Assembly (NCBI GenBank): GCA_027382625.1
Contig: JAJKFJ010023569.1
Span: 1 to 64,000, forward strand
Direction: 5' to 3'
Length of the DNA stretch: 64,000 nucleotides
Source: Tetmemena sp. SeJ-2015
Taxonomy: Eukaryota; Ciliophora; Spirotrichea; Sporadotrichida; Oxytrichidae
Below the pieces are notes generated by a model. It did not search any database and was not told where the DNA came from. It saw only the letters and a list, made by a program, of their open reading frames with translations. Below are positions 800 through 15,750 of this stretch, piece after piece. Position 1 is the stretch's first letter. Each line of letters starts with the position of its first letter. A program made the translations under genes and the position numbers.

Positions 800-1975
800 A
801 GCTAATGACCATCTGACGTTGGGGCATTTATTATTTTGTAATTTTGATTAGCTCCTTCACTTCTTTATTTCTTCAAAGATTATTAATGAGGACTGCTTTG
901 TAGAGGAGATTTCCCAGTTCCAATCTATTGTTTATTTCTCAAGAGGTGATTTGAGAATCTCTTCTCTAAAAGGCCATCTACCCCCTGATCTTTTATTTAA
1001 GTATATTATTTTTCTCATATTTGAATAATTATGTTTTGTGATTAATAAAGAGAAAATAGCATATGGAGAAATTTTTTTATCATTATTAAATAATAATATG
1101 ATTTAATCTTCTTCCTTCTACTTTACCTTTGTAGAATGAGATTTCAAATTACTCAATGAAGGAATTTAGCTATGCTTAGCGTTTAAAGACTCAGCATGTG
1201 GTGATCTTTATTGATTAATTTATTTGACTTCCTCCTTCTATTCTTAGGAAAAAAATTATTGCAAGTCAAGATTAAGATGTCCCTCAGTTTAAATTTAAGG
1301 ATCTGATCTATTTGAAACACCATTCATTATCTTTTGAGATGGCTTTTGCTTTTATGAAATGAGTATTGTTGAATATTTCGATGATCTGTTCGACTGATTA
1401 TGTTTCTCTTATTCAATCTAGTTAGATGCAATAATTTTGAGGTTTTAATTTTAGACATTTTCAATATCTTTTTCTAGATGATCAATTATAGGATTGAGAT
1501 TTCTGCCACTAGACAAAAGGTTTCCTTTATTCTTTTTATCTAAGAGTTTTGAAGAAGCATCGATTTGAGTATCTTAATTTTAGAGCTGATGATTTTACCT
1601 CACATCTTTTTAGATAAAATTATTTCCCAAATGGCATCTAGGATCTCCAATGTTAGACAATTCTTTCAACTTTTTGTTTATATCCTTCTTCTATATAGGA
1701 TGATCTAAATCCCTTTTCTCCTAATGGTTATACAGCTGTTATGATGCCAAATTTTCCTTATTTTGTAGATTAGATTTACTGCCCTCTTGTACTTTAGCTT
1801 CATTTTGAGTAGCATCTATATTTTTTCTTTCCTGATTAATTATAAAGTAGTAAATATGAAATTTGTTAACAATTACAGTTTTAAAGAGCTTGCAGCTAGT
1901 GCCTTAGCTTTTAAGCCTAGTAATTTTGCTTAGGGGTAATTTTGGTTTAAGCGCGGAGAAGTTATTGAATCATTT
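800..1975 (+). CDS. unidentified coding region, several MDSs
   Basis: I do not recognise the product. In the ciliate code the + strand has long open stretches at about 800-1138, 1150-1352 and 1497-1970 with many in-frame TAG/TAA codons and richer base composition than the flanks. Readable pieces include NEDCFVEEISQF, SSLKGHLPPDLLF, SLSFEMAFAF and FPNGIQDLQC. The stretches are in different frames and separated by TGA codons, as expected for MDSs broken by unremoved IESs. The last part is rich in aromatic residues and cysteines. No start could be fixed. A shadow or decayed gene is possible. Confidence 0.35.
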
Positions 1976-2233
1976 CAAATCTCTTCGCTGCAGAAGCATT
2001 TAAAGCAGTCAACTTGCTATCAATTCAATAAATATTTTTATAATTAAAATTTAATCCCTATCTGATATATTGATAAGGGAGAAAGAAAAAGGCACTTATA
2101 AAATTTAAGATAAAACGAATATGACATATGAATGTAATATACTTTAGGTTGCTTAGGAGTGAGAAATATTCCTATCTTTTTTGACTTGTCAAGAATTATA
2201 AGAGACCCATCATTGAAATGAGCTTAAATTTAC

Positions 2234-4015
2234 TCATTAGACATCACAAATAACATGCATTTTTCGTCTTGCATGCATTGACGCACAAATGTTAATTGCT
2301 TATTCTCCTAAGAAAATTACTCTTAGTTTATATTCTCCAGGTACAAAATATAATAATAACTTGCAAATTTAATCTATAAAGTAGTAGGGAAGAATTTTAT
2401 CACTCTATTACTCTTCCATGATTCTGATATGGCTTTTAAACTATTGCAGTAATGCGTATTTCTTTTAAAGCTGTCGAGTTAACCCTTAAATGTTGCTTGC
2501 CGAGTATACTTGACCAATTTCCTTTCTTGCAGAGAAGCCCAAATTTTTAGAATAAGGATAAGGACTTGGCTAATTATTTGGCAAGAAAATATACTGCTCA
2601 TTATTCTATTGAGATTAGCTCTGCATAATGATTGTTGCATCATTAAAAAGTACACCAAAATCCCCATTAGTGAATAAAATCATATCAAGTTTTATGTATA
2701 AGTAATGAACTTATAACCAATTCCATACTTTTAAGAATAGTCAGCCCATCTTTGTACTACAACAAGTTCTTGCATAACTTCGAGTTCTAATATTTTAAGT
2801 TCCAAGTTTTCCTCAAGATATTAAAGCTTAATTTTCTCTTCCTAATTCTTAAAGTCTTTTGAATTAATTTTTGATGGCTAGATTTTCTAGTTTAAAGCTT
2901 TTTTGATTACTATATTCGCTTCCTCTGAAGCTTTCGGAAGTATCCTTTAATGATTTTCAATGTTTTAATGTTACTATTGATTTGAATTGAGTTTCTCAAA
3001 TTGCCTAATGAAGTCTTGACTTGGTGGCTCATTGAGACAATATAGGGGTAGTTCTGGAGGCATGATTATTTAGGACTGAAAGAATGAATGAGAGAGTATT
3101 TAGTCTAGAGATGGGCGCATAGATGGCTCTCTCTGTAGAATGAGTGTAATAACGTCCATGAACTCATAGCTCAGAGGTAGCTAGTTCTGCTTCTTCCTTG
3201 TTGTCTCATTTGGAAACACATAACTTTAGAAACACTAATTCTTATAATAACTGACGCTCTTGATTTTCTTGTATGTATCCTCCACAACTGGAGTCTCAAA
3301 GGGAGGTCTTCCTACGACTAGAGTATACATTATAACACCTAAAGCCCAAACATCTGCAGCAAAAGAGTAGCCACACATCTTCGGCTCAGGCGAATTCATG
3401 TTCTCTTGAGCTGCCATCAAGATTTCTGGATTAAATAAGAAAGTTTAGTTGATAAGAATGGAGCCATGTAATTAGGAGTTCCGCAAATTGAAGACCTAAA
3501 ATCTATCTCTTATTGTAGCTGAACAGCTAATCCAAAATCTCCAATTTTAAGTTGCATCTAATGATCCAAGAATAAGTTACCTAACTTTAAATCTCTATGC
3601 AACACATTTAGCTTTAAAAATGAAAGCATGTTTTACCATTTGATGACTAAAAACATTTAATTTGAATTGTAGGGCTTGCTATGCATGTGTTTGAGGCCTT
3701 CTATTAGCTACTTGGAATAATACCTCACTTCAAATTCTGTGAGCCACCATCTTCTCCTCATCAAATCTGCTAAAGTTTGATTCTCGCACAACTAATTAAA
3801 TCATTTAGCTATTTGACTAAACAACTCAAGTAACATGTAAACATTTGCTTCATCCTCAAAGAAGTGGTGGAATGTAACTATGTGAGGATGGTTGAGTTGT
3901 CGATGTAGCTGAATCTCAGATTGAATCTTCTGTCTCTTTCTTAACTTCTAGAGGGTTTACTTATCAATCACCTTTCCTGCAAGTGTCTGCTTTGTTTCGC
4001 CACTTACAAACTCAT
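2234..4015 (-). CDS. Polo-like protein kinase, 3' block (N-lobe after the Gly loop, C-lobe, polo box)
   Basis: This is most of a Polo-like serine/threonine kinase, a mitosis and centriole regulator. Read downward from 4015 it gives FVSGETKQTLAGKVIDK (ATP-binding Lys), HPHIVTFHHFFEDEANVYM, EFEVRYYSKQLIEG, the catalytic HRDLKLGNLF, KIGDFGLA, CGTPNYMAPE and ADVWALGVIMYTLVVGRPPF. After the kinase domain comes a polo box (VVVQRWADYSQKYGIGYK, then GDFGVLFNDAT, then KKYALLQQFKSHIR). TGA ends the frame at 2234-2236. A second polo box is not clear, so the extreme C-terminus is uncertain. The glycine loop is absent here; it lies about 11 kb away at 15.15 kb and is joined through the 12-base pointer at 4004-4015. 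The 5' neighbour is the meckelin 5' block on the same strand. Confidence 0.9.
2675..3826 (-). other. IESs inside the Polo-like kinase 3' block
   Basis: Four IESs restore the kinase frame when removed with one pointer copy. Pointers are given in gene sense: 3794-3826 (AGTTGT, giving LLELCENQ), 3615-3677 (AAG, giving HMHSKLNVLHRDLK), 3430-3461 (CCA, giving NYMAPEILMAA) and 2675-2709 (TTCA, giving GIGYKFTNGDFG). All are AT-rich and lack GT-AG ends matching the frame. Confidence 0.85.
4004..4015 (-). other. 12-nt scrambled-gene pointer, kinase 3' block edge
   Basis: In gene sense the sequence is ATGAGTTTGTAA. The same 12-mer occurs at 15140-15151. Joining the blocks there reads KGGFAKCYEFV-SGETKQTLAGK in one frame, a standard Polo-like kinase glycine loop followed by the lysine strand. 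Confidence 0.9.
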
Positions 4016-4069
4016 TTCAAACACATTTAACAGAAATGATTAGAACCTTATTAGATAAAGCAATTAATT

Positions 4070-4081
4070 TTAGTTGGGCTA
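4070..4081 (-). other. 12-nt scrambled-gene pointer, meckelin 5' block edge
   Basis: In gene sense the sequence is TAGCCCAACTAA. The same 12-mer is at 15081-15092. The join reads SNSEVAQL-RRFGSTISQSC without a frame break. The 54 bases between this pointer and the kinase pointer (4016-4069) are AT-rich spacer belonging to neither coding frame. Confidence 0.9.
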
Positions 4082-5525
4082 CCTCTGAATTAGAAATTTA
4101 ACAAGCCAAAAGTTGGTCAGAGACGGTCTCAAAACCTTTGAATTGTCCATCCAGAGTGAAGGTCGCTAGCTGATAAGTAAGAGTGCTGAGAATTCCAATC
4201 TCTTGATCCTCGTAGCCAAAACTCACTCTCATTTTTACTCTCTTCTCTTGACTCAAAACTTCGTTTGCATTTCTAGAGTAAACTTTTATATGAGAATTCA
4301 TTTGAGGTCAATAAATTAATTCTTATATTTAGTAAAGCCAAGGGAAACCAACTTTCCAGCCGTTGTCCTCATAAAAGGTATTTGCAAGTGTTGAAGACTG
4401 GGTATTGACGATGTTTTTGAAGAGAGAGCATACAATAGTTCTCTCATCATAGAGTTATTCAAGTTTAATAGAGTTTATACTTTAGCAATCAGCGAATAAA
4501 TATCCTAATACAGGACACAAAGATTGGCTAATACTTAGCATTTTCTTGGGTTTCCATACTCTTGACAACCTACTGCCGCATCATAGTAGAGATAGTTGTA
4601 AGTGTCAGAAATTACTACCGTCACTTGTCCAAGACTACCCCCTCCTGTCTCAACATAGTTGTAGTTTATTGTCCTTGCGTTTTCTAATGGATAATTTGTT
4701 CTCACCTAGGTCACATCAGTATTCAGCAAACACATCGCTCCAGAATAACATTAAAAAATTATTCTAAAGTTTAGTAATGCTTAGAGAAAATTTTAAGAAG
4801 TGGTCCATTAGGCAGTTTAGCAAGCACAAGTCCATGGAGTAGTTGTTGGTGTATATACTTATCCTTCATAAGGGCATACGTCGCAAGTATAGATCGGCCT
4901 ATTGTTTGGGCCTGCATACTGTAGACCTGTATCATTACAAGCAACGCAGGTTTTAGCAGTGAGGAAATTATTAAGATCATCTCTCTCCACGACTCTCTAG
5001 TAGAGTGGGCAGATGCAGTCCTTGTAAGTGCTTGAAAATGTTGCGCTGCCTGAACATCCCAGGCATTGAGACAAATCTCGAGTCGCACCTGTATTCTAAA
5101 AATAAAGACATAGTGGTCGATGTCATCTCTGCACAGGGTACACAAGTTGGGAAAAAGTTATCTAGAGTTGTTTGATCTACATAGTACCCAACGTCACAAA
5201 TACAAGTAATCTAAAATTTATATATAAAGGCTTTGTAATGAAACTATAAATATTTTGGATGCAATTATAGTTTTTAAAATAAATAAGATGTTATATTTAA
5301 GTCTCTAAGAAAGGAGATTAAAGTCTTAAAATGTTTACTATTTGAATTTGGAACCATATTAGTGGGACAATTGCTGCAAGCGAGGGTTGAAGAATCAAAG
5401 TACTAAACAGAGGTGCACTAAGTTGAAGTACTTGAAGTAGTGAGTTGCGCATTAATGCTACTCACCATGAAGAAGAGCAACAAAGTTATCCCTCCTTATA
5501 GAATGATACACTATCTCTTGGTCAT
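4070..5525 (-). CDS. TMEM67: meckelin (TMEM67), 5' block
   Basis: N-terminal ectodomain of meckelin, the Frizzled-like receptor of the ciliary transition zone. The start at 5525 begins MTKRQCII and is followed by a hydrophobic signal peptide (GGITLLLFFMVSSINA). A cysteine-rich region follows: CSNCPTNMVPNS, TCICDVGYYVDQ, FFPTCVPCAEM, RDLSQCLGCSGSA, CICPLYQRVVERDD, TCVACNDTG, then the family signature CQVLANLCVL. Next come NTFYEDNGWKVGFPWLYQ and a beta-rich part ending SNSEVAQL at the 12-base pointer. IESs interrupt it near 4300-4330, 4760-4800 and 5215-5335; I did not fix all their borders. The block stops exactly where the 3' block at 12916-15092 begins in the family alignment, although that block lies upstream on the minus strand. 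The gene is therefore scrambled. Confidence 0.9.
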
Positions 5526-5831
5526 CTATTTCAAAATCATGTAAATATATTTTGAGTTGGAAAAGAGGGCTGATCTAGCTCTAATTTAAATTGCTCCCTT
5601 TTTAATTTGAATTTAAATTATTCCTTTAGAATTTATAATTATACCCATATTAAATTAGAAGTTATAATCTTGGACCTGTGATGTCGTACTAAAGTAGGTG
5701 TGGAGTTGCTCATTAGATTTATTTAGCCAATCTGATTAATTAAATTCCTTTAAATATAATTACACTCATAAGAGATAGTGTGGCTAGATATTTTTAAATA
5801 AATAAGCTTTAAAATTTGAATCAAATTTAAA

Positions 5832-8800
5832 ATGCAAAAAAAAAGGAGAGAGTAGCTTTTACGCTAATCGGGAGTTAGCACTGCTTAACTAAACAGAGAA
5901 TCAAGTGCAGGGAGGATAACCTAAGCTAGAGCCTAATAAATGATTTCACAGCAACACTAGCCTAGCTTTTAATTTGTGTTTCAGCCTTAAATTTCAAATG
6001 GTAAGTTCTCATGATGGAATTTAGAATGAAATCATCAGTCAGAGAGGAATATTATATTTGCGCAATCTCATCAATTTGAAATTCTTTATAGAACAAAGAC
6101 TGTCTAACATAGCTGCGAATGCGGCAGGAGTTAGGACATCATTGATTAACTAAAACTAAGGCGGTTTCAGCAATCAGACTATGAGCAGAAATAGATAAAC
6201 AATGAGTCGAACCATGGGAACTGCTCAACCCTTCGGCACTTTGAATAATTAAGTCCAAGGACAAAGTCGAAATTAACCTCAGAGCAAACTATCTATAGGA
6301 GGTTAAGGAAATTTAATGGCATTTGGATAATTCTTTAATTTTGTTACTTTGTAAAAGATAAAAGTCTAACTATGTGAGCAAGTAGAATAATTTGGGAGAG
6401 GAAGGATCAGCTTACTCTCAGTAATCATAGAAAGATCCAAGATCAGAATATATCTTATTTCATATTAAATGAATGAAGAGCAAAGCAAGAAGCTTGAGTA
6501 GCTTCAGATTCAGATTTCTCAAAGCCTGAAAAATATCTGAGGGAGATCTTCGATTTCTTGAAAAGTGTGACTATTGTCTAGGATGAGAAGAACTTCTTAA
6601 GGAGTCTGAAGACAATAAATGGCCAATAGGCTTAGTTCATCATATATAATATGATCAAGATCTTTGCTCCTAATTATCAGTAAATGCCCAAGTTTGAGGA
6701 ACAATAAATAAACTAAAGTGATGTTATTTTTAACAAGAAATAGTGAACTTGTAAAATTCTCCATTAAAATCACTGTTATAAATTTAATTGTTTAAGCAAA
6801 TGTGCTACCCTGGGACAATAAGAAGTGATGCTATAAAAGCAGTGGGAGCTTAAACTTCTATTTCATTCCTGCTGAGAGCTCTTTACTGGCTGTACTTGGT
6901 GGCTAAAATTTACTTTATTGAAAAGCAACCAATAGCTGCTGAGGCAGAAGATGAGATGGATTATCAATTGCTTAATATCAATAAATTCATCTCTAGTATA
7001 GATTTAATATAACTTAACCCAAGAGGTAATCAAACTATAGAAATACAGTTTAATGTTTATTAAAGAGCAATAAATATATAGCAGAGGACGAAGATGAAGA
7101 CAGAAGGTCAAGTTATGGGATTGTGTAGATTAACGAAGAGGAAGAGAAAACTTCAACTGACCCCCTGCAGATGCTTTTATAGTCACAGGTTGGAGTTAGC
7201 GAAATCAGTTAGAAAAATAGACAAAGAAAACGCAGAAGAGCAACATCCAATGATGATCGCAATCTGCAAGAATATCTTTCAAGAGACAGTGAAATCCAGT
7301 AGCACTAGTAGAATAAAGCAAGCACTAACATTCACTATTAGTTTTACTTACTGTAATTCAATAAGAAGATTTGTCCTCTGATGATGAAGATGCTATTGAC
7401 CCCAGTCAGTAAATTTTCTTAGATCTACTCAAAGATTCCGAGAAGTATTAGAATTTTCAGCATCCCAATCAGCTTAACTTTTAACTCCCGAATCAAGTGA
7501 AAATTAAGCCTTCACCTTTAGTGCAACTGCTGATGCACGAATATCAGGAGTATCTCCATCATCCTCTTGAAGTTGAATTCGACATGATTTTCAATCAAGT
7601 TTGCAATATGATCCACACTAAACTTGAAGAGTAAGGTTAAACTATTGAGCAAAAGAGGTAGATGATCAAGATAACCAGAAATGAAGTTCATTAAAAGGAG
7701 CAGTCACTTCCTAATCTAGCTGCTCTTTAAGAAGAAATTTAAGACTTATTTAGTACATATTTTAAGAGCTAAAGTAGAAATTTTTTTAACTTGAGGAGAG
7801 ATATAGAGGAGACTAAAATTGCTATTCAAGATTCTTAAGTCTAAAAAGGACACAGATTTCAGCAATTAGAAGCACTTAGTATCAAAATAAATGAATAAAA
7901 GGCAAAAGAGCAGATGCATATTTTAAATGATAATTACGGAATTCTATTATATATATCATTATGCTTGCTAGAGAAAAAGAAGAAAACGAGCAGAGAGTGA
8001 GAAACCAGCCGATGAATATATAGCAAGCTGATCTTATAAGCAATGAAAATAGGGCTAATAAATAACGCATAAGAGACATTGAATAGCGTGTCAACATTCT
8101 CAGAGATAGATTTAAAATGACGCAAACTTAGATTGCAACATTTTTCGAGCCTTAATATATAGATTGAAAAAGCTGATCATGAAATTTTGAATAATATTTC
8201 CTGTTAATTAAGTAGGTCGCTCAGCTCATAAATGGCGCGTTGATAGTACTTAAGCTTTAAGATGCGTAAAGAAATGAGTCTGCCTCAGCTGGAGAGTATG
8301 CTCGTGGTATTCACATTTCAATGTTAGGTGATGGCTATCTGGAAAAAGGAGTATAAATGGATACAGATGTTAGGCCAATTGTTGAGGAGTAAAAAGTTTT
8401 ATGGCGAGAGAAAATTGAAAACTTGAATCTTCTCAAAGGATATTTATTCTTCTTCTAATTATAGCATTACATCAAAGGTCAATTGAATGATGAGCTAGTT
8501 TAGACTGAGATTGAAGTCAAAAACTAGTTAGATGAAATGAGGCACATATAGGATTAACTGAAGTTACAAATCTCTTAGAATCAAAATTAGAATTAGTAAA
8601 TCGGTTAATTACAAGTTGTTGATTTATTTCAATTAGAAAAAGAAATTAATAATTTTTATTATTGTTCTCTCAGCAGCTACAGAGAAACTCAAAAAGGATT
8701 GTGATGTCTTAAAAGCCAAATTCAGTCAACAAGAAATCGAAATTGAGCAAATTATCAAACAATCCATATTAAGGCTTTTAAATGATGGTTATAAAATTCC

Positions 8801-9180
8801 TAATACTGATATTGATTGAATGTGATAACTTGAAAATAGAATAGCGAGATGTAGAAGGAGAGCTGGTAAAATTAAATTAGGAGAGTGAGGACTCTGGAGA
8901 GCACTTTAACCATGCTCAAGGGGAAATGAGACGCATTAAGTAGAGCCTTATGGAAAATATCTTGGTATTCAAAGGCACTATTAGATCTAGTATATAAAGC
9001 ATGAAGAGATAAGTTTTGTCTTACTACTCTGAAATCGAGCCAATCTTTCTTGACTAAAATAATTTAGCCCTATAATTTTTAATCATAAATAAAAGTAAAA
9101 ATAATGAAAACGATAGTAGGCAAGGTAATTATTTTTAGGACCTTGAGCAGCAAAGTTTTCAAAATGGTGAGAAGGAATGA
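5832..9180 (+). CDS. NDC80: kinetochore protein NDC80/HEC1
   Basis: NDC80 binds microtubules at the outer kinetochore. A start at 5832 (MQKKRREQ) opens a Gln/Ser-rich tail (6140-6420), then QKDPRSEY, the family KDPRP-like entry to the calponin-homology domain. The CH domain follows: SLREIFDFLKSVTIVQDEK, NFLRSLKTING, NMIKIFAPNYQQMPKFEEQ, IFKQMCYPGTIRSDAIKAVG, SFLLRALYWLYLVAKIY. An unusual acidic insert (AEDEDEDRRSS plus EEEEK, about 7080-7330) leads into the coiled coil: LLMHEYQEYLHHPLEVEFD, QKEQSLPNLAALQEE, NQPMNIQQADLISNENRANK. After the coiled coil, EYARGIHISMLGDGY matches the loop region. It ends at TGA 9178-9180 after LEQQSFQNGEKE. The borders of several IESs at 6005-6110, 7330-7375, 7940-7970 and 8160-8280 are not resolved. 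It lies on the opposite strand to its neighbours and inside the split kinase gene. Confidence 0.87.
6452..7081 (+). other. IESs resolved in NDC80
   Basis: Segments whose removal with one pointer copy restores frame: 6452-6465 (ATAT, 14 bp, giving RSEYQMNEEQ), 6530-6540 (CTGA, 11 bp, giving ISQSLREIFDF), 6734-6795 (TTTAA, 62 bp, giving SDVIFKQMCYP) and 7041-7081 (TATAG, 41 bp, giving NQTIAEDEDED). The 11- and 14-bp cases are very short, and an indel error is an alternative for them. Confidence 0.7.
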
Positions 9181-9239
9181 TCGATTTTAAAAAACAATTT
9201 TAGCTTATTTCTTTCTTTCTATTATGTAATTTTACACTT

Positions 9240-10530
9240 ACAGAGTTTAAAACTGCTTTTGTAAATGAAGATGTCAATTTTAATTAGACAGAGAGATCTC
9301 CTCCAGTCATAATTATTTGCATTAAATTAACTTAATTCATCTGAGTATTGATATATTTTAAGCGTATTTCATCTCCTCTATAAATGGAATCCACCTATTA
9401 TATAAAATATATATTCGTGATTTAGCGTGTTTAGGTCGAATTTGTGTCAAAAATGGCCAGATGGCCTGAACCATTAATCAAAGCACTCCTTTTAGAATAG
9501 TTAAAATTCTAGCCCATCTTTGGAATAAGCCATAAACATTTCTTCTCTATTTCAACCGAAGGAAATGTTAGGACCAGAGAAATTTGGATTTGCGTAAAAA
9601 TACATTTATTTATTATTTAGAGAGGCATCTAGAGCTAATTAGGAGTTGGCATGTAGAATAATCAAAAATCCCTTATTTGGCCATTACTATTAAGTTCAAG
9701 GCAATCTAAACCCTAATGATAAGTAATCCATTTATAACCAAAAATGAAATAACAAGAAAGGAAGAGGAGACTGCAATTTTTACAGTGAAAAATTCTTTGA
9801 AAAGTGGTATTTTAGGGTTTAAATGAAGAAATAATTAAGTATTTTGAGAGAAAACAATTGCTCATTTAATCTATCTCACAAAGACAAATCTAAAAGCATT
9901 GATCATCAAGCAGAAATAGGTAAAGAAATCGTGAAAGAATCTATAAATAAAATATTCGAATATTTTATATATCTCATTCATCTTGAAAATCAATCCTTAT
10001 TCCTAAAAAATGACAATAAAGTTTTAGAAAATATTTACACTGGTTTCAGGATACTTTTAACCTATAGATAGCCTGCTAATTTAAAATAGGAGAATACTTT
10101 ATGAAAAGTCTAAATTAAAGAAGACCAAATTAGAGGACATTCGACATGTAAAGCAACTTCTAGGGAGAAAATGAGACATTGTTTTCTTTAGGTTTCAAAA
10201 TTTATAAAATCGAAACAGAAAAGGCAAATAAATTAGGTTTTTATTCCCTTATTCAGTTTCAGAGTTATATAAATGGAAGGAGCTATTATTATTGCAATAT
10301 TTTTTTAGGTCCCTTCTATCTTCAAACTATTGAATCAGGATAGGAATTTTATAAGTGTGATTTATGTTTACAGACAGTGTCTTGAATATAATTTGGCATT
10401 TTTTTCTCTATTTCCATCGAATTATGGACTAAATTGCCTAATAGAATTCTAAATGTTGATTGAAATTAAATAAAGAAAGTTTCCCATCTAAGTAGACCGC
10501 ATTACCATTACTCTTTGAGGAATTATGAGT
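9240..10530 (+). CDS. possible unidentified coding segments
   Basis: Not recognised. With TAA/TAG as Gln the + strand is open in pieces: about 9245-9345 (EFKTAFVNEDVNFNQTER), 9424-9745 (KEMLGPEKFGFAQKY, REASRANQELACRI) and 10080-10380. Polar, Gln-rich text resembles ciliate coding DNA, but base composition is only slightly richer than the flanks and no family motif is visible. It could be a short gene between NDC80 and the carrier, or decayed sequence. Confidence 0.3.
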
Positions 10531-10607
10531 TAGAGCAAAGAAGCAATAATATTTAGGCATACTATGGATACTTTCTGCTGTGTATATTTTGAGGCTTTAT
10601 CTCTTGT

Positions 10608-12130
10608 TCAAATAGACTCGGAGGCGATGGGAGACTGGTACTCGATTGATGCCCAGGCCTCGTTGTTATTACTGAACATGCCTAAGTTGTCTGCCATCCA
10701 GAGGGCGATTGCGTAAGATATACCGTAGCGTCTCATCCATCTGCCTAAACCAGTCAAATAGTTGAAGTACAACATATCCATATTCTCTAGCATCCACTTG
10801 GCGCACTCACTAAGATTTCTAAAGCTCATCGAATATTAAAATTAAGGGGTGTTTACTGTCTGTAAGAGTTGTTCCATGTGCAATGTCCACCTCTTTCCTT
10901 GGGCCAGATGTCGACCATTTCGCGAGTGAAGTAGAAAGGATATGCGAGGATGGCAGATACTCCCATAGAAATAGCCATATTTCCAAGTTTGATGTAGTCA
11001 TAGGAGAAATCGTTATACGTCCACAGGAAGAAGTACTTGTTCTTAATGAAAGAGTAGAAAGTACAGAAGGATGTCCAGAATACGAACTGACTTGACCAAA
11101 TGGGGAAACCTCCCTTGAAGAGATAAACCAGTCCCTCTTCGAAAGGAATCCTGATTAGGGCGTTCAGAGGAGAAGTATATCCTCGGCGCATCTCAACAGG
11201 CCAGGTTCTGTCAGCGTAATAGGCGCGGCGAGCGTTTTCAAAAGGAATGCTAGTCCAGCAAGTAGGACCGAAGGCCATCATAGAGCAAGTCAAATGCTTG
11301 AATGAGTTCCAGTCAGCAAAGTCTTGAGGAGACCAGGTACCTCCATAAATCCACTGCCAGGCTGCGAGCTTAACTGCAACATCACCTCCTCCTGAAACTA
11401 GGCCGAAAGTCACTCTACATGAAATTAATTATCTACACACTCTTACTTCTTGGCTAACTCGGGCCAGAACTCTGGAAGCCTAAATGTTTCCTTAAGGAAA
11501 ATGTTCCACTCCATGCGAGATTTGGGTCTCTCATAGAATTGACTGAGGATGTTGAAGTTGCTCTGGAAATGGTTGATTGGCTCCATCTAAAAGGTAATCG
11601 GTTATTATTTTTGTACCAAGACAAATTTTCTCGTAATGGAATATCGTAGGCTTAGCTTTTAATGCCTTGAGAGTGATTCTCATTTAGCATATGACGAGTT
11701 AAATTGCATGATTTAGACTTCTCATCCTTTTTTAATAAAATGAAGTCCGAGTTTGTTAAATATGAAGGCTTAAGAGGATTCTTACAAGGAAAACGGCTGT
11801 GGACCAAGCATACATGCCTCTCTTCCAGTTTTGTGATGGAGAGTTATAGACGGGAGCCTTATTAACAAATATATAAATAGAGTAAGATAACCTTCCAAAC
11901 AGGCACTAAAAATTTAGTCTTAGATATGTTTGAAAAATGGTAGATCTTTCAAGAAAAGGGAATTGCTCTTTTTGATGCGACTCTCAATAAGTGAAAGTGC
12001 GAGATCGTGGTTCCTTTTCTTTATCGCGGATTCTTGTATATGAATGAGACTTACTTCTGTAGAAGGAGTCAGTGTATGGCTGATGGATTCTTCTCACATC
12101 ATCGAATTCAAAGTATTTCCAAAATTCAAT
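10608..12130 (-). CDS. mitochondrial-carrier-family (SLC25-like) protein
   Basis: Read from about 12130 down to TGA at 10608-10610: FEFDDVRRIHQPYTDSFYR, SPSQNWKRGMYAWSTAVFL, MEPINHFQSNFNILSQFYER, EFWPELAKKVTFGLVSGG, PFENARRAYYADRTWPVEM, NALIRIPFEEGLVYLFKGGF, AYPFYFTREMVDIWPKE and MLENMDMLYFNYLTGLGRWM. The spaced P-F-x-x-x-R and 'EG-x-x-x-L-F-K/Y-x-G' pieces match degenerate repeats of the SLC25 fold (six membrane helices, inner mitochondrial membrane). The basic/acidic salt-bridge motifs are weak, so transport is doubtful. Ciliate respiratory complexes are known to contain carrier-like subunits, and this could be one (inference). Two introns and two IESs are resolved: 11862-12053 (TAAG) and 10808-10857 (AGT). 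The true start is not seen. Confidence 0.78.
11415..11446 (-). other. 32-nt spliceosomal intron in carrier gene
   Basis: In gene sense it runs GTAAGAGTG to ATGTAG. Splicing joins ELAKK to VTFGLVSGG in frame. The direct-repeat alternative (AGAGTG at both edges) gives the wrong phase, so this is an intron and not an IES. Confidence 0.75.
11587..11785 (-). other. intron in carrier gene
   Basis: In gene sense GTAAGAATCC to CCTTTTAG, joining STAVFL to MEPINHFQ in frame. At 199 nt it is long for this window and may itself contain an IES. Confidence 0.7.
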
Positions 12131-12915
12131 AAGATAAAAACTTTAAAATATTTAATGTGAGTGCAATACCTCTACAAAAGATAGATAGATAGAAGACCAA
12201 TAATAAATTGCGTACTAAGGACTGATTGATTTATAAAAAAAATCATTAAAATTTATTTTTGTGAATTCTCCGAATCGATTTCTTATGTGAAAGTGGCAAA
12301 TAAATTTTTAGGTGAAATTGAAGAAAAGAATTATATCATTTTACTCATTGCTATTTATTCTTGTCTTAAACAATTTAGGATTGTTTATAAAACTCAAATC
12401 TATTTGTTTTAATTAAGCAATAAGACATTTTCTGTTTTTAAGATGATAATAATTATCTATTATAATAACCCCATTTTATTATAAATACAGCAGCACCAAT
12501 TTATTATTTTGAGAGAAATTGCTACCCTTTTAAATAAGATTGAATTTTCCTTAAAAAATAATTTCAAGAATAAAATTATCTTAAAATAAAAGAATGGCTG
12601 TTAGAATTCCTAAATAAACAGTCCAAATTATAAATCTAACTTTTTTTGTATTCAATTATAAATATGAATGTTATCCTTCTAAGTTAGATTAAATTTGATA
12701 TCAAATTATGCAATTAAAAATTTACTAAATAGTTTACAATTAAATTTAAAGTAAAAAGTTTGATAAAAATTTCCTCCAATATTTCTTTCTGTATTTTTCA
12801 TTTACCTTTTAGTAAGTATTCAAATTTAAATATAATCTTTTACTTTCGAAGATAATAGATGAAAATAAATTGAGTTTATTTAAATTACATACCTACTTAT
12901 ATAAATCTTAAAAAG
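12131..12915. other. AT-rich spacer
   Basis: Very AT-rich, with homopolymer runs and no open frame of coding character on either strand. It separates the carrier 5' end from the meckelin 3' end and may hold the carrier promoter or an unseen first MDS. Confidence 0.6.
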
Positions 12916-15092
12916 TCATATTAAGAACCTTTCATCTGCTAAAGTGTGTTTCGCCAGATTTCTACGACCGTAATGAGCTCTCAGGAACATTAAAAAGTTG
13001 TCCACAAGATATTAAAATTTAATAAATATTGAATTTAACAGATAGGCAATTAAGATTCCAAGAATCAATCTAGATTAAAGAGCAGCATTTGATTGAGCGG
13101 CAATGTCAATAAAAGATATGACTAGAACATCAAGCATTAAAAAGTCGAAATCCAGACCCATCATCAAGTATGAAGAGTAGCCCATCCAGGGGTCTTTGAA
13201 CATTATAGGTACGTCTTAGCTTAGCATAGAGGGCATAAGACCTAGCCACCTTGACATGGCTCCTCTATCTCTTATGTATTGTTTGGGCTCTACCCTCACT
13301 TTTTCAATGTAAGTTTGCATTAATCTGTTCATGAAAACTCCGGGCTCTTCTAAGTTTGCAATATTCATTCCAACAGGAACAGCTCGCTCCCTTGTTAGCA
13401 CTTACTGAACAGAGTTGAATCTATTCTACTTTTGATTCATAATATTCAAAATTTCCTGGTTAATCTCCTTCTGATACAAATCTTTGTAGTACACAAGCAT
13501 CTTTCTGGGCATGTAAAGTTCGTATGTTTACAAGTTAGGATATTCCACAGTTAATCCACGCAGTTGAGCTTTACCCGTACGCTCGTATTCGAGAGCTCGG
13601 CGAAGTACTTCCGATGAGACCTCAGCCTAGCCGTATGGAGAGCGCCCGTGGATATAGTAACCGTGAAATTGATTGTCAAACATGAGTACTGAAATGTTGC
13701 TCATAGCGCAAAGATCAGTAAACTCCTCAGTTGCAAGGGGCACTCTGAATTTGATTAAATAGCGAAGTACATATTGAATGATGCCTATTATGTACATAAC
13801 GATAGCTGTGATAAAGAAATTTAAGACATAGTTTTCAGGAGAGTTCACCTTCACCTCTGATTAAATTCAATAAAATCCTAATTTTTATAACTCTGATAGA
13901 TCAGGATCATGAGTAGAAAAATATCTGAAACCTATTCCTTCCATAAAGAAAGCGTAGCAAAGTAAAGTGAACTCCATAGATATGAGCTTCATGTTTTGTA
14001 ACTCATTTAGTTCATTAAGAAGAAATAGCTATCTCCAGGCATTAACTCCAAAGTATGGCCTTTCTTGTTCTTCTTTTGGAATAGCTCTTTGCTTTTGCTT
14101 TTCCCAGTCTACTAAAAACACATCGAATGAGCATTACTCGAATATGATCTTATATCCTATAGTAACTAGCTTTGTAATTAGAACTGCATAGAATAAGCCC
14201 TTGAATGGTAAGTAATTGGAATCTGTATTTCCTGATACTGCAGGCAACAAAACGTATACATTTTCTTGCAACTTGAAGAACACAAACCAATAACCGCTTA
14301 TAATTACTACGAACCAGAATAGAGATAGATATCATCTAAAATGCTTATTTATCATGAATTGATTCAGAATAGTAAGTTTGAGAATACGTCGAGGCAGGTA
14401 ACGATAACTTTTATTTTTGATAGTCTTCACAACTGAATACTTGCATTTGGCATTAACATCATCTGAGAGTTAATTTGGAGACCAGCACCAAATACATAAC
14501 TATACGAGAATAATGACTGCCATCAAAATCATCACTCCGATAAATAGGCCAGTCATAGTCTGCCAGAAGTGTGAAGTATCCATGGCATACTCTGTTGTGA
14601 AAGAAACAGTTGCAAGAGAATTAGAAGCGACTCCAGTTCGAGAACGCTCTCTATAGTTTATAATGAGAAGTGGAGTGAGAATCATCTCATCATTATCTAT
14701 AAAAATCTTGTAAATAACTGATTAATCTGGATCAAGCTTAATACTTAAAGTGATTTCCATAGGATATCTAACTACTGTTGATATAGCTCCATTAATGTAG
14801 CCATTTGTACCTTCGATACCGCTCTTTGTATCAAACAGGAAGAATCTGCGAGTGAGCCTCCACTTGTTTTGATCTGTAACTCCTGCTTCATTCACTTTCT
14901 AGCCGGTAGCGTCTTAGAAATTTCTGATCAATACAGGCACGTCTATCAAATCTCCGTTGTAATCCTAAAGGTAGAGCTCATAAAATAGATTTTCCTGGGG
15001 AGGGTGGTCATAGATAGAGGAAGATATTAGATTCGATAAATCAAATGTGCAGCTCTGTGAGATTGTTGATCCAAAGCGCCTTAGTTGGGCTA
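12916..15092 (-). CDS. TMEM67: meckelin (TMEM67), 3' block
   Basis: C-terminal two thirds of meckelin, starting at the 12-base pointer 15081-15092 and ending FLI-TGA at 12916. Recognisable family segments in order: FYELYLQDYNGDLIDVPVL, KWRLTRRFFLFDTKSG, the first membrane helix (MTGLFIGVMILMAVIILV), FWFVVIISGYWFVFF, DVFLVDWEKQKQ, FFITAIVMYIIGIIQYVLRY, FTDLCAMSNISVLMFDN, HGYYIHGRSPYG, FDFLMLDVLVISFIDIAA and the terminal RNLAKHTLADERFLI motif. IESs occur near 13000-13060, 13870-13900 and 14335. Several membrane segments agree with the Frizzled-like topology. Upstream on the same strand, 47 bases away, is the 5' block of the Polo-like kinase, not the meckelin 5' half. Confidence 0.92.
15081..15092 (-). 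other. 12-nt scrambled-gene pointer, meckelin 3' block edge
   Basis: Second copy of TAGCCCAACTAA (gene sense), partner of 4070-4081. On its 5' side the frame is lost immediately; on its 3' side it continues as RRFGSTISQSC. Confidence 0.9.
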
Positions 15093-15139
15093 ATTAATTC
15101 TCTGTATTAAAAAAATTTGTCTTATTATATATACAATTT

Positions 15140-15151
15140 TTACAAACTCAT
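15140..15151 (-). other. 12-nt scrambled-gene pointer, kinase 5' block edge
   Basis: Second copy of ATGAGTTTGTAA (gene sense), partner of 4004-4015. The glycine-loop text GGFAKCYEFV runs up to it; 15093-15139 is 47 bases of AT-rich spacer before the meckelin pointer. Confidence 0.9.
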
Positions 15152-15750
15152 AGCATTTGGCAAATCCTCCCTATAATACTTAATTTCCTTTTAAAAAAAT
15201 ATTACCTTTCCTAGGAATTTTCCTCTGAAATATACTCTCTCTCCAATCCTCACCTTTTAATTTATGTCTCCTCCAGTCAATTAAATTAATTTAATCTCTT
15301 CTTCCGTAGGTGGGATTATGTAAACTTGATATCATTTTATTTGTCTAATGATACTAATTGCAATAATAGGATTAAGTTTACTTCTCCACAACTTTTTCTA
15401 TTTAATCCTTAAGCAATAACTCGCTATTGTTCTATAAATGCTGTCCTTTATGATCATTTCTTTATCTGCCATTATTTGAATTTGATCTTCCTTATCTTGG
15501 CGAAATCTTTTCGTTTTCTTATCCTCATTTAAAAATGCATTAAAAAGTATAAGTACCTGGCTTAAAATAGAATCTTTTCTCATTTCCATTATTTGATTAG
15601 ATGAATCTTTTCTCTAAATTCTAGGGTGACTAGCGAATCTTATCCTACTATTTTGATTCTTAATTTCTATTTAACATTTAATTCATCTCAGCCTTGGTAC
15701 CTTACTTATTTTGAAAAGCCTATTCATTTTCTTTATTGTAAAAACTTCAT
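15140..15750 (-). CDS. Polo-like protein kinase, 5' block (N-terminus and glycine loop)
   Basis: N-terminal piece of the kinase whose remainder is at 2234-4015. The closest part to the pointer reads PPTEEEIKLIQLTGGDINQ, RIGERVYFRGKFLGK, then GGFAKCYEFV, the family 'RGKxLGKGGFAKCYE' loop. Between GK and GGF a 38-base segment is removed; it can be read either as an IES with pointer AGG or as a GT-AG intron (GTAATA to TTATAG), both giving the same protein. Further upstream are Gln/Lys-rich MDSs (DKEDQIQIMADKEMIIKDS, KQQDKIRQSPQNLEKR). No ATG could be assigned; the start lies beyond about 15750 or in another MDS. Confidence 0.82.

What the first reader, a model, noticed from the sequence alone, without database searches (positions are those of the whole stretch)
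4004..15151. Polo-like kinase gene split by an 11-kb insert carrying whole other genes (nested germline gene)
The kinase glycine loop (GKGGFAKCYEFV) ends at 15140 and its continuation (SGETKQTLAGKVIDK) starts at 4004, both on the minus strand. A 12-base repeat ATGAGTTTGTAA sits exactly at both edges and the join is in frame. The 11 kb between them holds meckelin, a carrier gene and NDC80. Nested germline loci are known in Oxytricha, but a kinase hosting three complete genes as one giant IES is notable.
Basis: partly seen in the sequence, partly recalled or inferred. Interest (0 to 1): 0.93.

Follow-up and report, generated by a model that had tools for sequence, protein, structure and literature searches.

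The report
Three-layer nested germline gene locus
In a ciliate's germline DNA, a cell-cycle kinase gene is split around a second gene that is itself cut in two and stored back half first, with two more genes inside that; such nesting is known, but this is a very clean example.

Summary
The core observation holds. A polo-like kinase (PLK) is split at 15140/4004 by an 11-kb stretch, with an exact 12-bp repeat (pK, ATGAGTTTGTAA) at both edges and an in-frame join. "One giant IES with three complete genes" is wrong in one point: meckelin is not contiguous. Its C-terminal block (M2, 15092-12916) lies just inside the right edge, its N-terminal block (M1, 5525-4070) just inside the left edge, in permuted order. 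A second exact 12-bp repeat (pM, TAGCCCAACTAA; 15081-15092, 4070-4081) joins M1 to M2 in frame. Joined meckelin is one 1,046-aa frame, 68% identical to one Stylonychia lemnae protein. NDC80 (+) lies collinear between the meckelin blocks, with a carrier-like gene (-) that looks collinear by eye. Minus-strand order: K1-pK-47 bp-pM-M2-carrier-NDC80-M1-pM-54 bp-pK-K2. This is a three-layer "Russian doll" germline locus, a kind described in Oxytricha and Tetmemena. The two long-range pointers are 12 bp; 16 short-range pointers inferred in the same genes average 4.25 bp. No somatic DNA of this species was available: the joins rest on frames, repeats and homologous proteins, not on sequenced products.

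The parts
15140..15727 (-). K1: 5' part of the PLK gene up to and including pointer pK; start codon at 15727 placed only by weak likeness of MNRLFKISK to MLQLFKASPK of P0001
   Evidence: the 5' half still holds unresolved interruptions (stops in frame)
15171..15205 (-). 35-nt GT...AG intron (or small IES) between G-K and G-G-F of the glycine loop
15140..15151 (-). pK right copy, ATGAGTTTGTAA
15093..15139 (-). 47-bp AT-rich spacer (13% G+C) between pK and pM
15081..15092 (-). pM right copy, TAGCCCAACTAA
12916..15092 (-). M2: C-terminal block of meckelin up to its stop codon, with five inferred small IESs
10610..12150 (-). carrier-like gene (weak Mito_carr match), interrupted by small IES-like gaps, seen by eye in linear order; ends approximate
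6130..9150 (+). NDC80 gene, collinear (P0133 residues 115-806 at 6504-9150; the N-terminal part 6130-6500 by frame only)
4070..5525 (-). M1: N-terminal block of meckelin, with five inferred small IESs; start codon taken at 5525
4070..4081 (-). pM left copy, TAGCCCAACTAA
4016..4069 (-). 54-bp spacer (22% G+C) between pM and pK
4004..4015 (-). pK left copy, ATGAGTTTGTAA
2107..4015 (-). K2: rest of the PLK gene (kinase domain and polo boxes), with six inferred small IESs; 3' end not resolved

Best explanation
This is a three-layer nested ('Russian doll') micronuclear locus of a spirotrich ciliate. The outer gene is a PLK in two blocks (K1, K2). The middle gene is meckelin in two blocks stored in permuted order (M2 first, M1 last). 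The inner genes are a carrier-like gene and NDC80. During development of a new macronucleus, K1 is joined to K2 over the 12-bp pointer pK and M1 to M2 over the 12-bp pointer pM, while short IESs are cut out of both genes over pointers of 2-7 bp. The pointers lie in the nested order pK-pM...pM-pK, so the two long joins do not depend on each other. If pM is joined first, M1-M2 leaves on the 11-kb segment and the kinase keeps an ordinary gap of 125 bp (one pointer copy included). If pK is joined first, meckelin can still be completed on the released piece. Shown here: the anatomy, frames, repeats and homology. Inferred from what is known of Oxytricha: that the joins happen in this species, that RNAs from the old macronucleus guide them, and that telomeres are then added to separate nanochromosomes.
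For: Kinase: the joined protein matches Pkinase 3-263/263 and POLO_box, human PLK1 without a gap at the join, and best of the 7,986 candidates scored an S. lemnae kinase, 52% over 96%, E 4.8e-167. Meckelin: one S. lemnae protein (P0121) maps with residues 12-376 to 5480-4071 and 371-1036 to 15099-12919, both minus. After the pM join and ten small excisions the frame is open for 1,046 aa and 68% identical to P0121 over 1,036 alignment columns, 16 of them gapped. Around the join, 89 columns against P0121 hold 51 identities and no gap. M1 read straight on without rearrangement meets a stop 17 codons after EVAQL. Pfam Meckelin: joined piece 134-377, 134.6 bits, against 102.3 bits for the M2 piece alone. 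The same genome has a second, collinear meckelin at C3019:48820-45617, which aligns over the join with no gap in 51 columns, 15 identities. Chance of a 12-bp in-frame repeat at a random coding junction: 24 of 300,000 draws. Pointer lengths 12 and 12 bp against a mean of 4.25 bp for 16 short ones fit the Oxytricha averages of 11 (scrambled) and 5 (non-scrambled) bp quoted in PMC6765146 (passage). The S. lemnae PLK, meckelin and NDC80 proteins each come from one contig, of 3,565, 4,718 and 2,547 bp.
Against: No macronuclear DNA of this species was found: DNA searches with 14000-15500 and 1900-4100 hit only the locus and an identical redundant contig, so no somatic junction was seen. The 18 contig lengths seen (15, C1977 and C3719, C3019) are all above 10 kb, so nanochromosomes may have been filtered out and their absence says little. 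The short pointers were chosen by me to keep the frame open, and some may be introns. Read straight on, K1 stays open for 64 codons past the pointer, so the kinase frame alone does not demand the join; the case for it is the homology. P0001 lacks ten residues just before the glycine-loop end. The six-frame POLO_box search of the genome listed 11 matches, none at this locus; the box is broken by a small IES and is found only in the joined protein. The Meckelin family search listed M2 but not M1; M1 alone scores 21.9 bits, under the cut-off of 25. The 5' half of K1 and the 3' end of K2 were not resolved. The carrier-like gene has only sub-threshold matches (15.5 to 20.1 bits, cut-off 22.3).
Confidence: 0.91

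Rival explanations
1. One reading: two layers only, the kinase with one giant IES that holds three independent complete genes.
For: Kinase join and pK confirmed; NDC80 is collinear.
Against: Meckelin is split into two blocks at the two ends of the insert in permuted order, with its own 12-bp repeat and a single open frame only after joining.
Confidence: 0.03
2. Assembly artefact: the meckelin segment was wrongly stitched into the kinase contig.
For: Only one independent contig: C3719 is identical to C1977 over the 26 kb compared, so it is no second witness. No reads could be inspected.
Against: Both edges fall at exact 12-bp repeats of both genes, separated by short AT-rich spacers that belong to neither protein. 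A stitching error would have to produce two reciprocal breakpoints at base precision in two genes.
Confidence: 0.04
3. One or both split genes are germline relics that are never assembled; the somatic copies come from elsewhere.
For: A second meckelin and other POLO_box genes exist in the genome.
Against: Joined frames are open over 1,046 aa (meckelin) and the whole kinase domain, and are closest to particular S. lemnae proteins. The other meckelin is a different paralogue: at the join it has 46 of 52 identities to P0122 but 18 of 49 to P0121 and 15 of 51 to the joined gene. No second copy of these kinase blocks was found at DNA level (K1 tested up to 15500).
Confidence: 0.03
4. Meckelin is joined over the 5-bp repeat GTTTG that overlaps pK, so that one recombination site serves both genes.
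For: GTTTG lies at both edges and gives an open frame (KCVCKNC), as first noted.
Against: It would add a stretch that is absent from S. lemnae meckelin and from the collinear paralogue, both of which run gap-free over the pM join.
Confidence: 0.02

Closest known systems
Russian doll loci of Oxytricha trifallax (Braun et al. 2018, PMC5940158; parts 1-3 of 4 of the text read)
   Same: MDSs of some somatic chromosomes lie entirely between MDSs of another, in layers; outer loci are more often scrambled; joined at pointers.
   Different: Other genes, and by protein identity not a species with proteins in the database. Here the middle gene has a plain permutation (2-1, no inversion) whose two blocks are the outermost items of the insert. 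Depth 2 by their index, against up to 4 there.
Russian doll loci of Oxytricha and Tetmemena compared (eLife 2022, PMC9797194; section 11 read, other passages seen)
   Same: Long pointers that bridge several other loci; a nested gene present in one lineage and absent in the other.
   Different: The section read names no PLK, meckelin or NDC80 locus; conservation in those species could not be tested here.
eccDNA from Oxytricha genome rearrangement (PMC6765146; abstract and passages seen)
   Same: Excised germline DNA can be circular, which is one topological route for a permuted gene.
   Different: Those circles are transposons and germline-limited loci, the latter with imprecise ends near pointers; a circle that carries a permuted gene is only a prediction here.

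Membership tests
Russian doll / nested germline locus | All MDSs of one somatic gene lie between two MDSs of another | tested here: met
   M2 and M1 both between K1 and K2; NDC80 between M2 and M1
Russian doll / nested germline locus | More than one layer (depth index 2 or more) | tested here: met
   kinase > meckelin > NDC80; rests on NDC80 and meckelin being separate chromosomes, as the S. lemnae contigs suggest
Russian doll / nested germline locus | Each gene ends up on its own macronuclear chromosome in this species | not testable with these tools
   no macronuclear DNA of this species; the S. lemnae proteins sit on three separate contigs
Scrambled gene (meckelin) | MDS order in the germline differs from the somatic order | tested here: met
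   order M2...M1 on one strand against the order in the S. lemnae protein
Scrambled gene (meckelin) | Direct repeat (pointer) at the end of one MDS and the start of the next, one copy kept | tested here: met
   TAGCCCAACTAA at 4070-4081 and 15081-15092, in-frame join; that one copy is kept in the somatic DNA is inferred from the frame
Polo-like kinase | Kinase domain plus polo boxes | tested here: met
   Pkinase 230.5 bits, POLO_box 53.6 bits on the joined protein; not listed by the six-frame genome scan
NDC80 | Head domain of the HEC/Ndc80p family followed by a long coiled-coil part | tested here: met
   P0133 (PF03801) collinear at 6504-9150; direct Pfam match of a rough piece only E 0.013, 15.7 bits, under the cut-off of 25.1
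Mitochondrial carrier | Mito_carr repeats above the Pfam cut-off | tested here: not met
   one repeat, 15.5 to 20.1 bits, cut-off 22.3; called carrier-like only

The most novel reading that the evidence does not exclude
The nest arose in one step: an 11-kb DNA circle carrying meckelin, the carrier-like gene and NDC80, perhaps a by-product of genome rearrangement, opened inside meckelin and inserted by a single crossover into a short IES of the kinase. Undoing that insertion at pM would leave the kinase with an ordinary 125-bp IES and would restore meckelin. If so, gene nesting would be a trace of circles returning to the germline.
Probability: 0.15. Interest if true: 0.72.

Novelty: new member of a known kind. 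Interest (0 to 1): 0.38.

Why it matters
It is a compact nested locus with base-exact edges that separates two questions usually mixed in such loci: how far apart two gene pieces can be joined, and whether the order of joins matters. Because the long-range pointers of host and guest sit 47 and 54 bp apart at the two ends, a few PCR products from developing cells would show which join comes first and whether the guest gene passes through a circle. It also gives a test of how nested loci arise.

Tried and rejected
Rejected: GTTTG as the meckelin pointer (my first guess, note), because the pM join runs gap-free against two other meckelins. Rejected: independent confirmation by contig C3719, which is identical to C1977 over all 26 kb compared.

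Led nowhere: Pfam scans of the six frames of 5601-12902 with TGA read through found only the weak carrier match. Scans of 10 kb on each side for an outer, fourth layer found RING-finger families on the left and an IQ motif just under its cut-off on the right, so no fourth layer is shown, though frames broken by IESs could hide one. A test for duplicated sequence beyond the pointers was not significant: 41 of 400 shuffles for the spacer before M2 against the end of M1, and a score of zero for the other three comparisons. Local alignment of five pairs gave, at the strict setting, 51, 921, 84 and 571 of 1000 shuffles for the four spacer-gene pairs and 27 of 1000 for the two spacers against each other. 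So neither the circle-insertion nor the duplication-and-decay origin is supported by the flanks. A crude test on 350-bp flanks was uninformative: 1,039 of 19,562 random segment pairs in this AT-rich window share a 12-mer, 371 of them two or more, and so do 60 of 2,000 simulated pairs; the weight lies on the in-frame position, not on the mere presence of a repeat. In one search draws too close together were skipped but not subtracted from the 300,000. The line printed as 'K1 read straight on' shows the wrong frame; one search gives the right one (open for 64 codons). A telomere search found 67 matches to a C4A4 pattern recalled from memory and did not help to find the kinase or meckelin nanochromosome. 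A paper search by gene names found 0 papers with 4 of 6 terms; searches for nested, Russian doll, permuted or circular ciliate loci (listings) brought up no paper that I recognised as describing this locus. The library holds open-licence papers only. The species was not identified.
Full report
What is there. The window lies in a 309,840-bp contig (C1977:115054-179053) of a 146-Mb assembly of 5,213 contigs. Its genes read TAA and TAG as Gln and are broken by short IES-like gaps, so I take it for germline (micronuclear) DNA of a spirotrich ciliate. The 12-mer ATGAGTTTGTAA (pK) has two exact matches in the window, at 15140-15151 and 4004-4015, both on the minus strand. Joining K1 (up to 15140) to 4003 onward over one copy gives an open frame GKGGFAKCYEFVSGETKQTLAGKVIDK through the kinase glycine loop, after one 35-nt GT...AG interruption at 15205-15171 is taken out.

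The kinase is real. After six further short excisions (27-91 bp over direct repeats of 3-6 bp) the joined protein matches Pkinase over 3-263 of 263 positions (230.5 bits) and POLO_box (53.6 bits). It aligns to human PLK1 at E 1.4e-74 with no gap at the join. Of 7,986 candidates scored, the best is a Stylonychia lemnae kinase, P0001, 52% identical over 96%, from a 3,565-bp contig. tblastn with P0001 places residues 89-598 at 4013-2107 and residues 4-60 weakly (E 0.048) at 15536-15381. Against the reading: P0001 lacks ten residues just before the glycine-loop end; the genome-wide six-frame POLO_box scan (11 matches) did not list this locus; K1 read straight on stays open for 64 codons past the pointer, so the join is demanded by homology and not by a stop. 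The 5' half of K1 and the 3' end of K2 are not resolved.

Meckelin is permuted. Pfam already pointed to it: the piece at 5122-4298 matches profile positions 56-126 (21.9 bits, under the cut-off of 25), while three open frames in 15147-12916 match 188-377, 405-544 and 552-825, all on the minus strand. One S. lemnae meckelin, P0121 (1,036 aa, one 4,718-bp contig; the best of 12 hits among 6,863 candidates), maps with residues 12-376 to 5480-4071 and residues 371-1036 to 15099-12919. The N-terminal half is therefore stored after the C-terminal half. A second exact 12-mer, TAGCCCAACTAA (pM), sits at the end of M1 (4070-4081) and the start of M2 (15081-15092) and nowhere else in the window. Joined over pM, and after ten small excisions (21-117 bp over repeats of 2-7 bp), meckelin is a single open frame of 1,046 aa, 68% identical to P0121 over 1,036 alignment columns. 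Around the join 89 columns against P0121 hold 51 identities and no gap; against P0122, a more distant meckelin, 90 columns hold 30 identities and one gap, away from the join. A second, collinear meckelin of the same genome (C3019:48820-45617) also runs through this place without a gap (51 columns, 15 identities). M1 read straight on meets a stop 17 codons after EVAQL.

Inner genes. NDC80 is on the plus strand: P0133 residues 115-806 lie in order at 6504-9150. Two proteins passed E 0.01 among 7,994 candidates scored (E 1.7e-110 and 3.9e-73); the second is named NDC80 of S. lemnae by UniRef and comes from a 2,547-bp contig. A carrier-like gene lies on the minus strand at about 12.1-10.6 kb. It has only sub-threshold Mito_carr matches, and a search of the genome with 240 residues of it found only this locus and its redundant contig.

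Layout and chance. Minus-strand order: K1-pK-47 bp-pM-M2-carrier-like-NDC80(+)-M1-pM-54 bp-pK-K2. In random pairs of coding positions of this locus, an exact repeat of 12 bp or more at an in-frame register within four codons turned up in 24 of 300,000 draws; here it turned up at both long-range joins. A plain shared 12-mer between 350-bp flanks would not be remarkable (1,039 of 19,562 random pairs). The 16 inferred short-range pointers average 4.25 bp (kinase 6,4,4,6,4,3; meckelin 4,3,4,2,5,4,5,2,7,5), though I chose them to keep the frames open and some of the gaps may be introns. The contrast with 12 and 12 bp fits the Oxytricha averages of 5 bp (non-scrambled) and 11 bp (scrambled) quoted in PMC6765146 (passage) and the statement in PMC9797194 that scrambled pointers are generally longer (passage).

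How it probably works. In Oxytricha, MDSs fuse at pointers and long and small RNAs guide the process (PMC5940158). Because the pointers here are nested (pK-pM...pM-pK), the two long joins are independent. Joining pM first would remove the 11-kb piece with meckelin completed across the pM junction and leave the kinase an ordinary 125-bp IES (113 bp plus one 12-bp pointer). Joining pK first would finish the kinase and leave meckelin to be completed on the released piece. Whether the released piece is a circle is open: circles exist in Oxytricha rearrangement, but those of non-repetitive loci have imprecise ends (PMC6765146), so clean reciprocal recombination is not the expected picture. None of these steps was observed here.

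Relation to what is known. Nested and layered germline loci are described for Oxytricha (PMC5940158): 1,301 of 15,811 somatic contigs have other loci nested in them, 125 at depth 2, 11 at depth 3 and 2 at depth 4. Two such loci are largely conserved in Tetmemena (PMC9797194). This locus is depth 2 by that index and is a new member of the kind. What stands out is the geometry: the permuted guest's blocks are the first and last items of the insert, so host and guest junctions lie 47 and 54 bp apart at the two ends. The paper searches made brought up no description of this locus that I recognised.

Limits. No somatic DNA of this species is in reach. The 18 contig lengths seen here are all above 10 kb, so nanochromosomes may have been filtered out. 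The second contig is identical over the 26 kb compared and is no second witness. The species was not identified. The origin of the nest (one-step circle insertion or stepwise duplication and decay) is not decided: the sequences beyond the pointers carry no significant trace of either.

Noticed in passing
G000 contig C3719 (192,380 bp; L003-L005) against C1977: C3719 begins exactly at window position 1 and is identical to C1977 over all 26 kb compared, so the assembly holds at least one redundant contained contig.
   Followed up: partly
L018 (C3019:41001-51000): A second, divergent and collinear meckelin paralogue, broken by small IES-like gaps; at the join stretch it has 46 of 52 identities to database protein P0122.
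   Followed up: partly
G000 contigs C298, C586, C672, C739, C770, C1030, C1301, C4311, C4966; C2828:3805-4156: Nine contigs of 11-21 kb begin at base 1 with C4A4 telomere repeats, and C2828 holds an internal array; they may be long macronuclear chromosomes or germline ends.
   Followed up: no
right of the window, L007 (window coordinates about 64176-66234 and 70573-71534): Protein-kinase-like stretches, hit by the S. lemnae PLK at low identity (best E 2.6e-10).
   Followed up: no
window 15139-15093: The spacer before M2 holds TTTTTAATACAGAG, close to TTTCTAATTCAGAG at the end of M1 (12 of 14), a possible but non-significant trace of a longer original repeat.
   Followed up: yes
P0121 (S. lemnae meckelin): Its 4,718-bp contig is about 1.6 kb longer than the coding sequence, enough for a second gene; whether the carrier-like gene shares a chromosome with meckelin is open.
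   Followed up: no
window 857-1969, minus: A 370-aa Gln/Lys-rich open frame just beyond K2, not searched on its own; it may be the 3' tail of the kinase gene or another gene.
   Followed up: no
L006 (C1977:105054-115053), minus: A RING-finger gene piece left of the window (zf-RING_2, E 5.1e-11).
   Followed up: no
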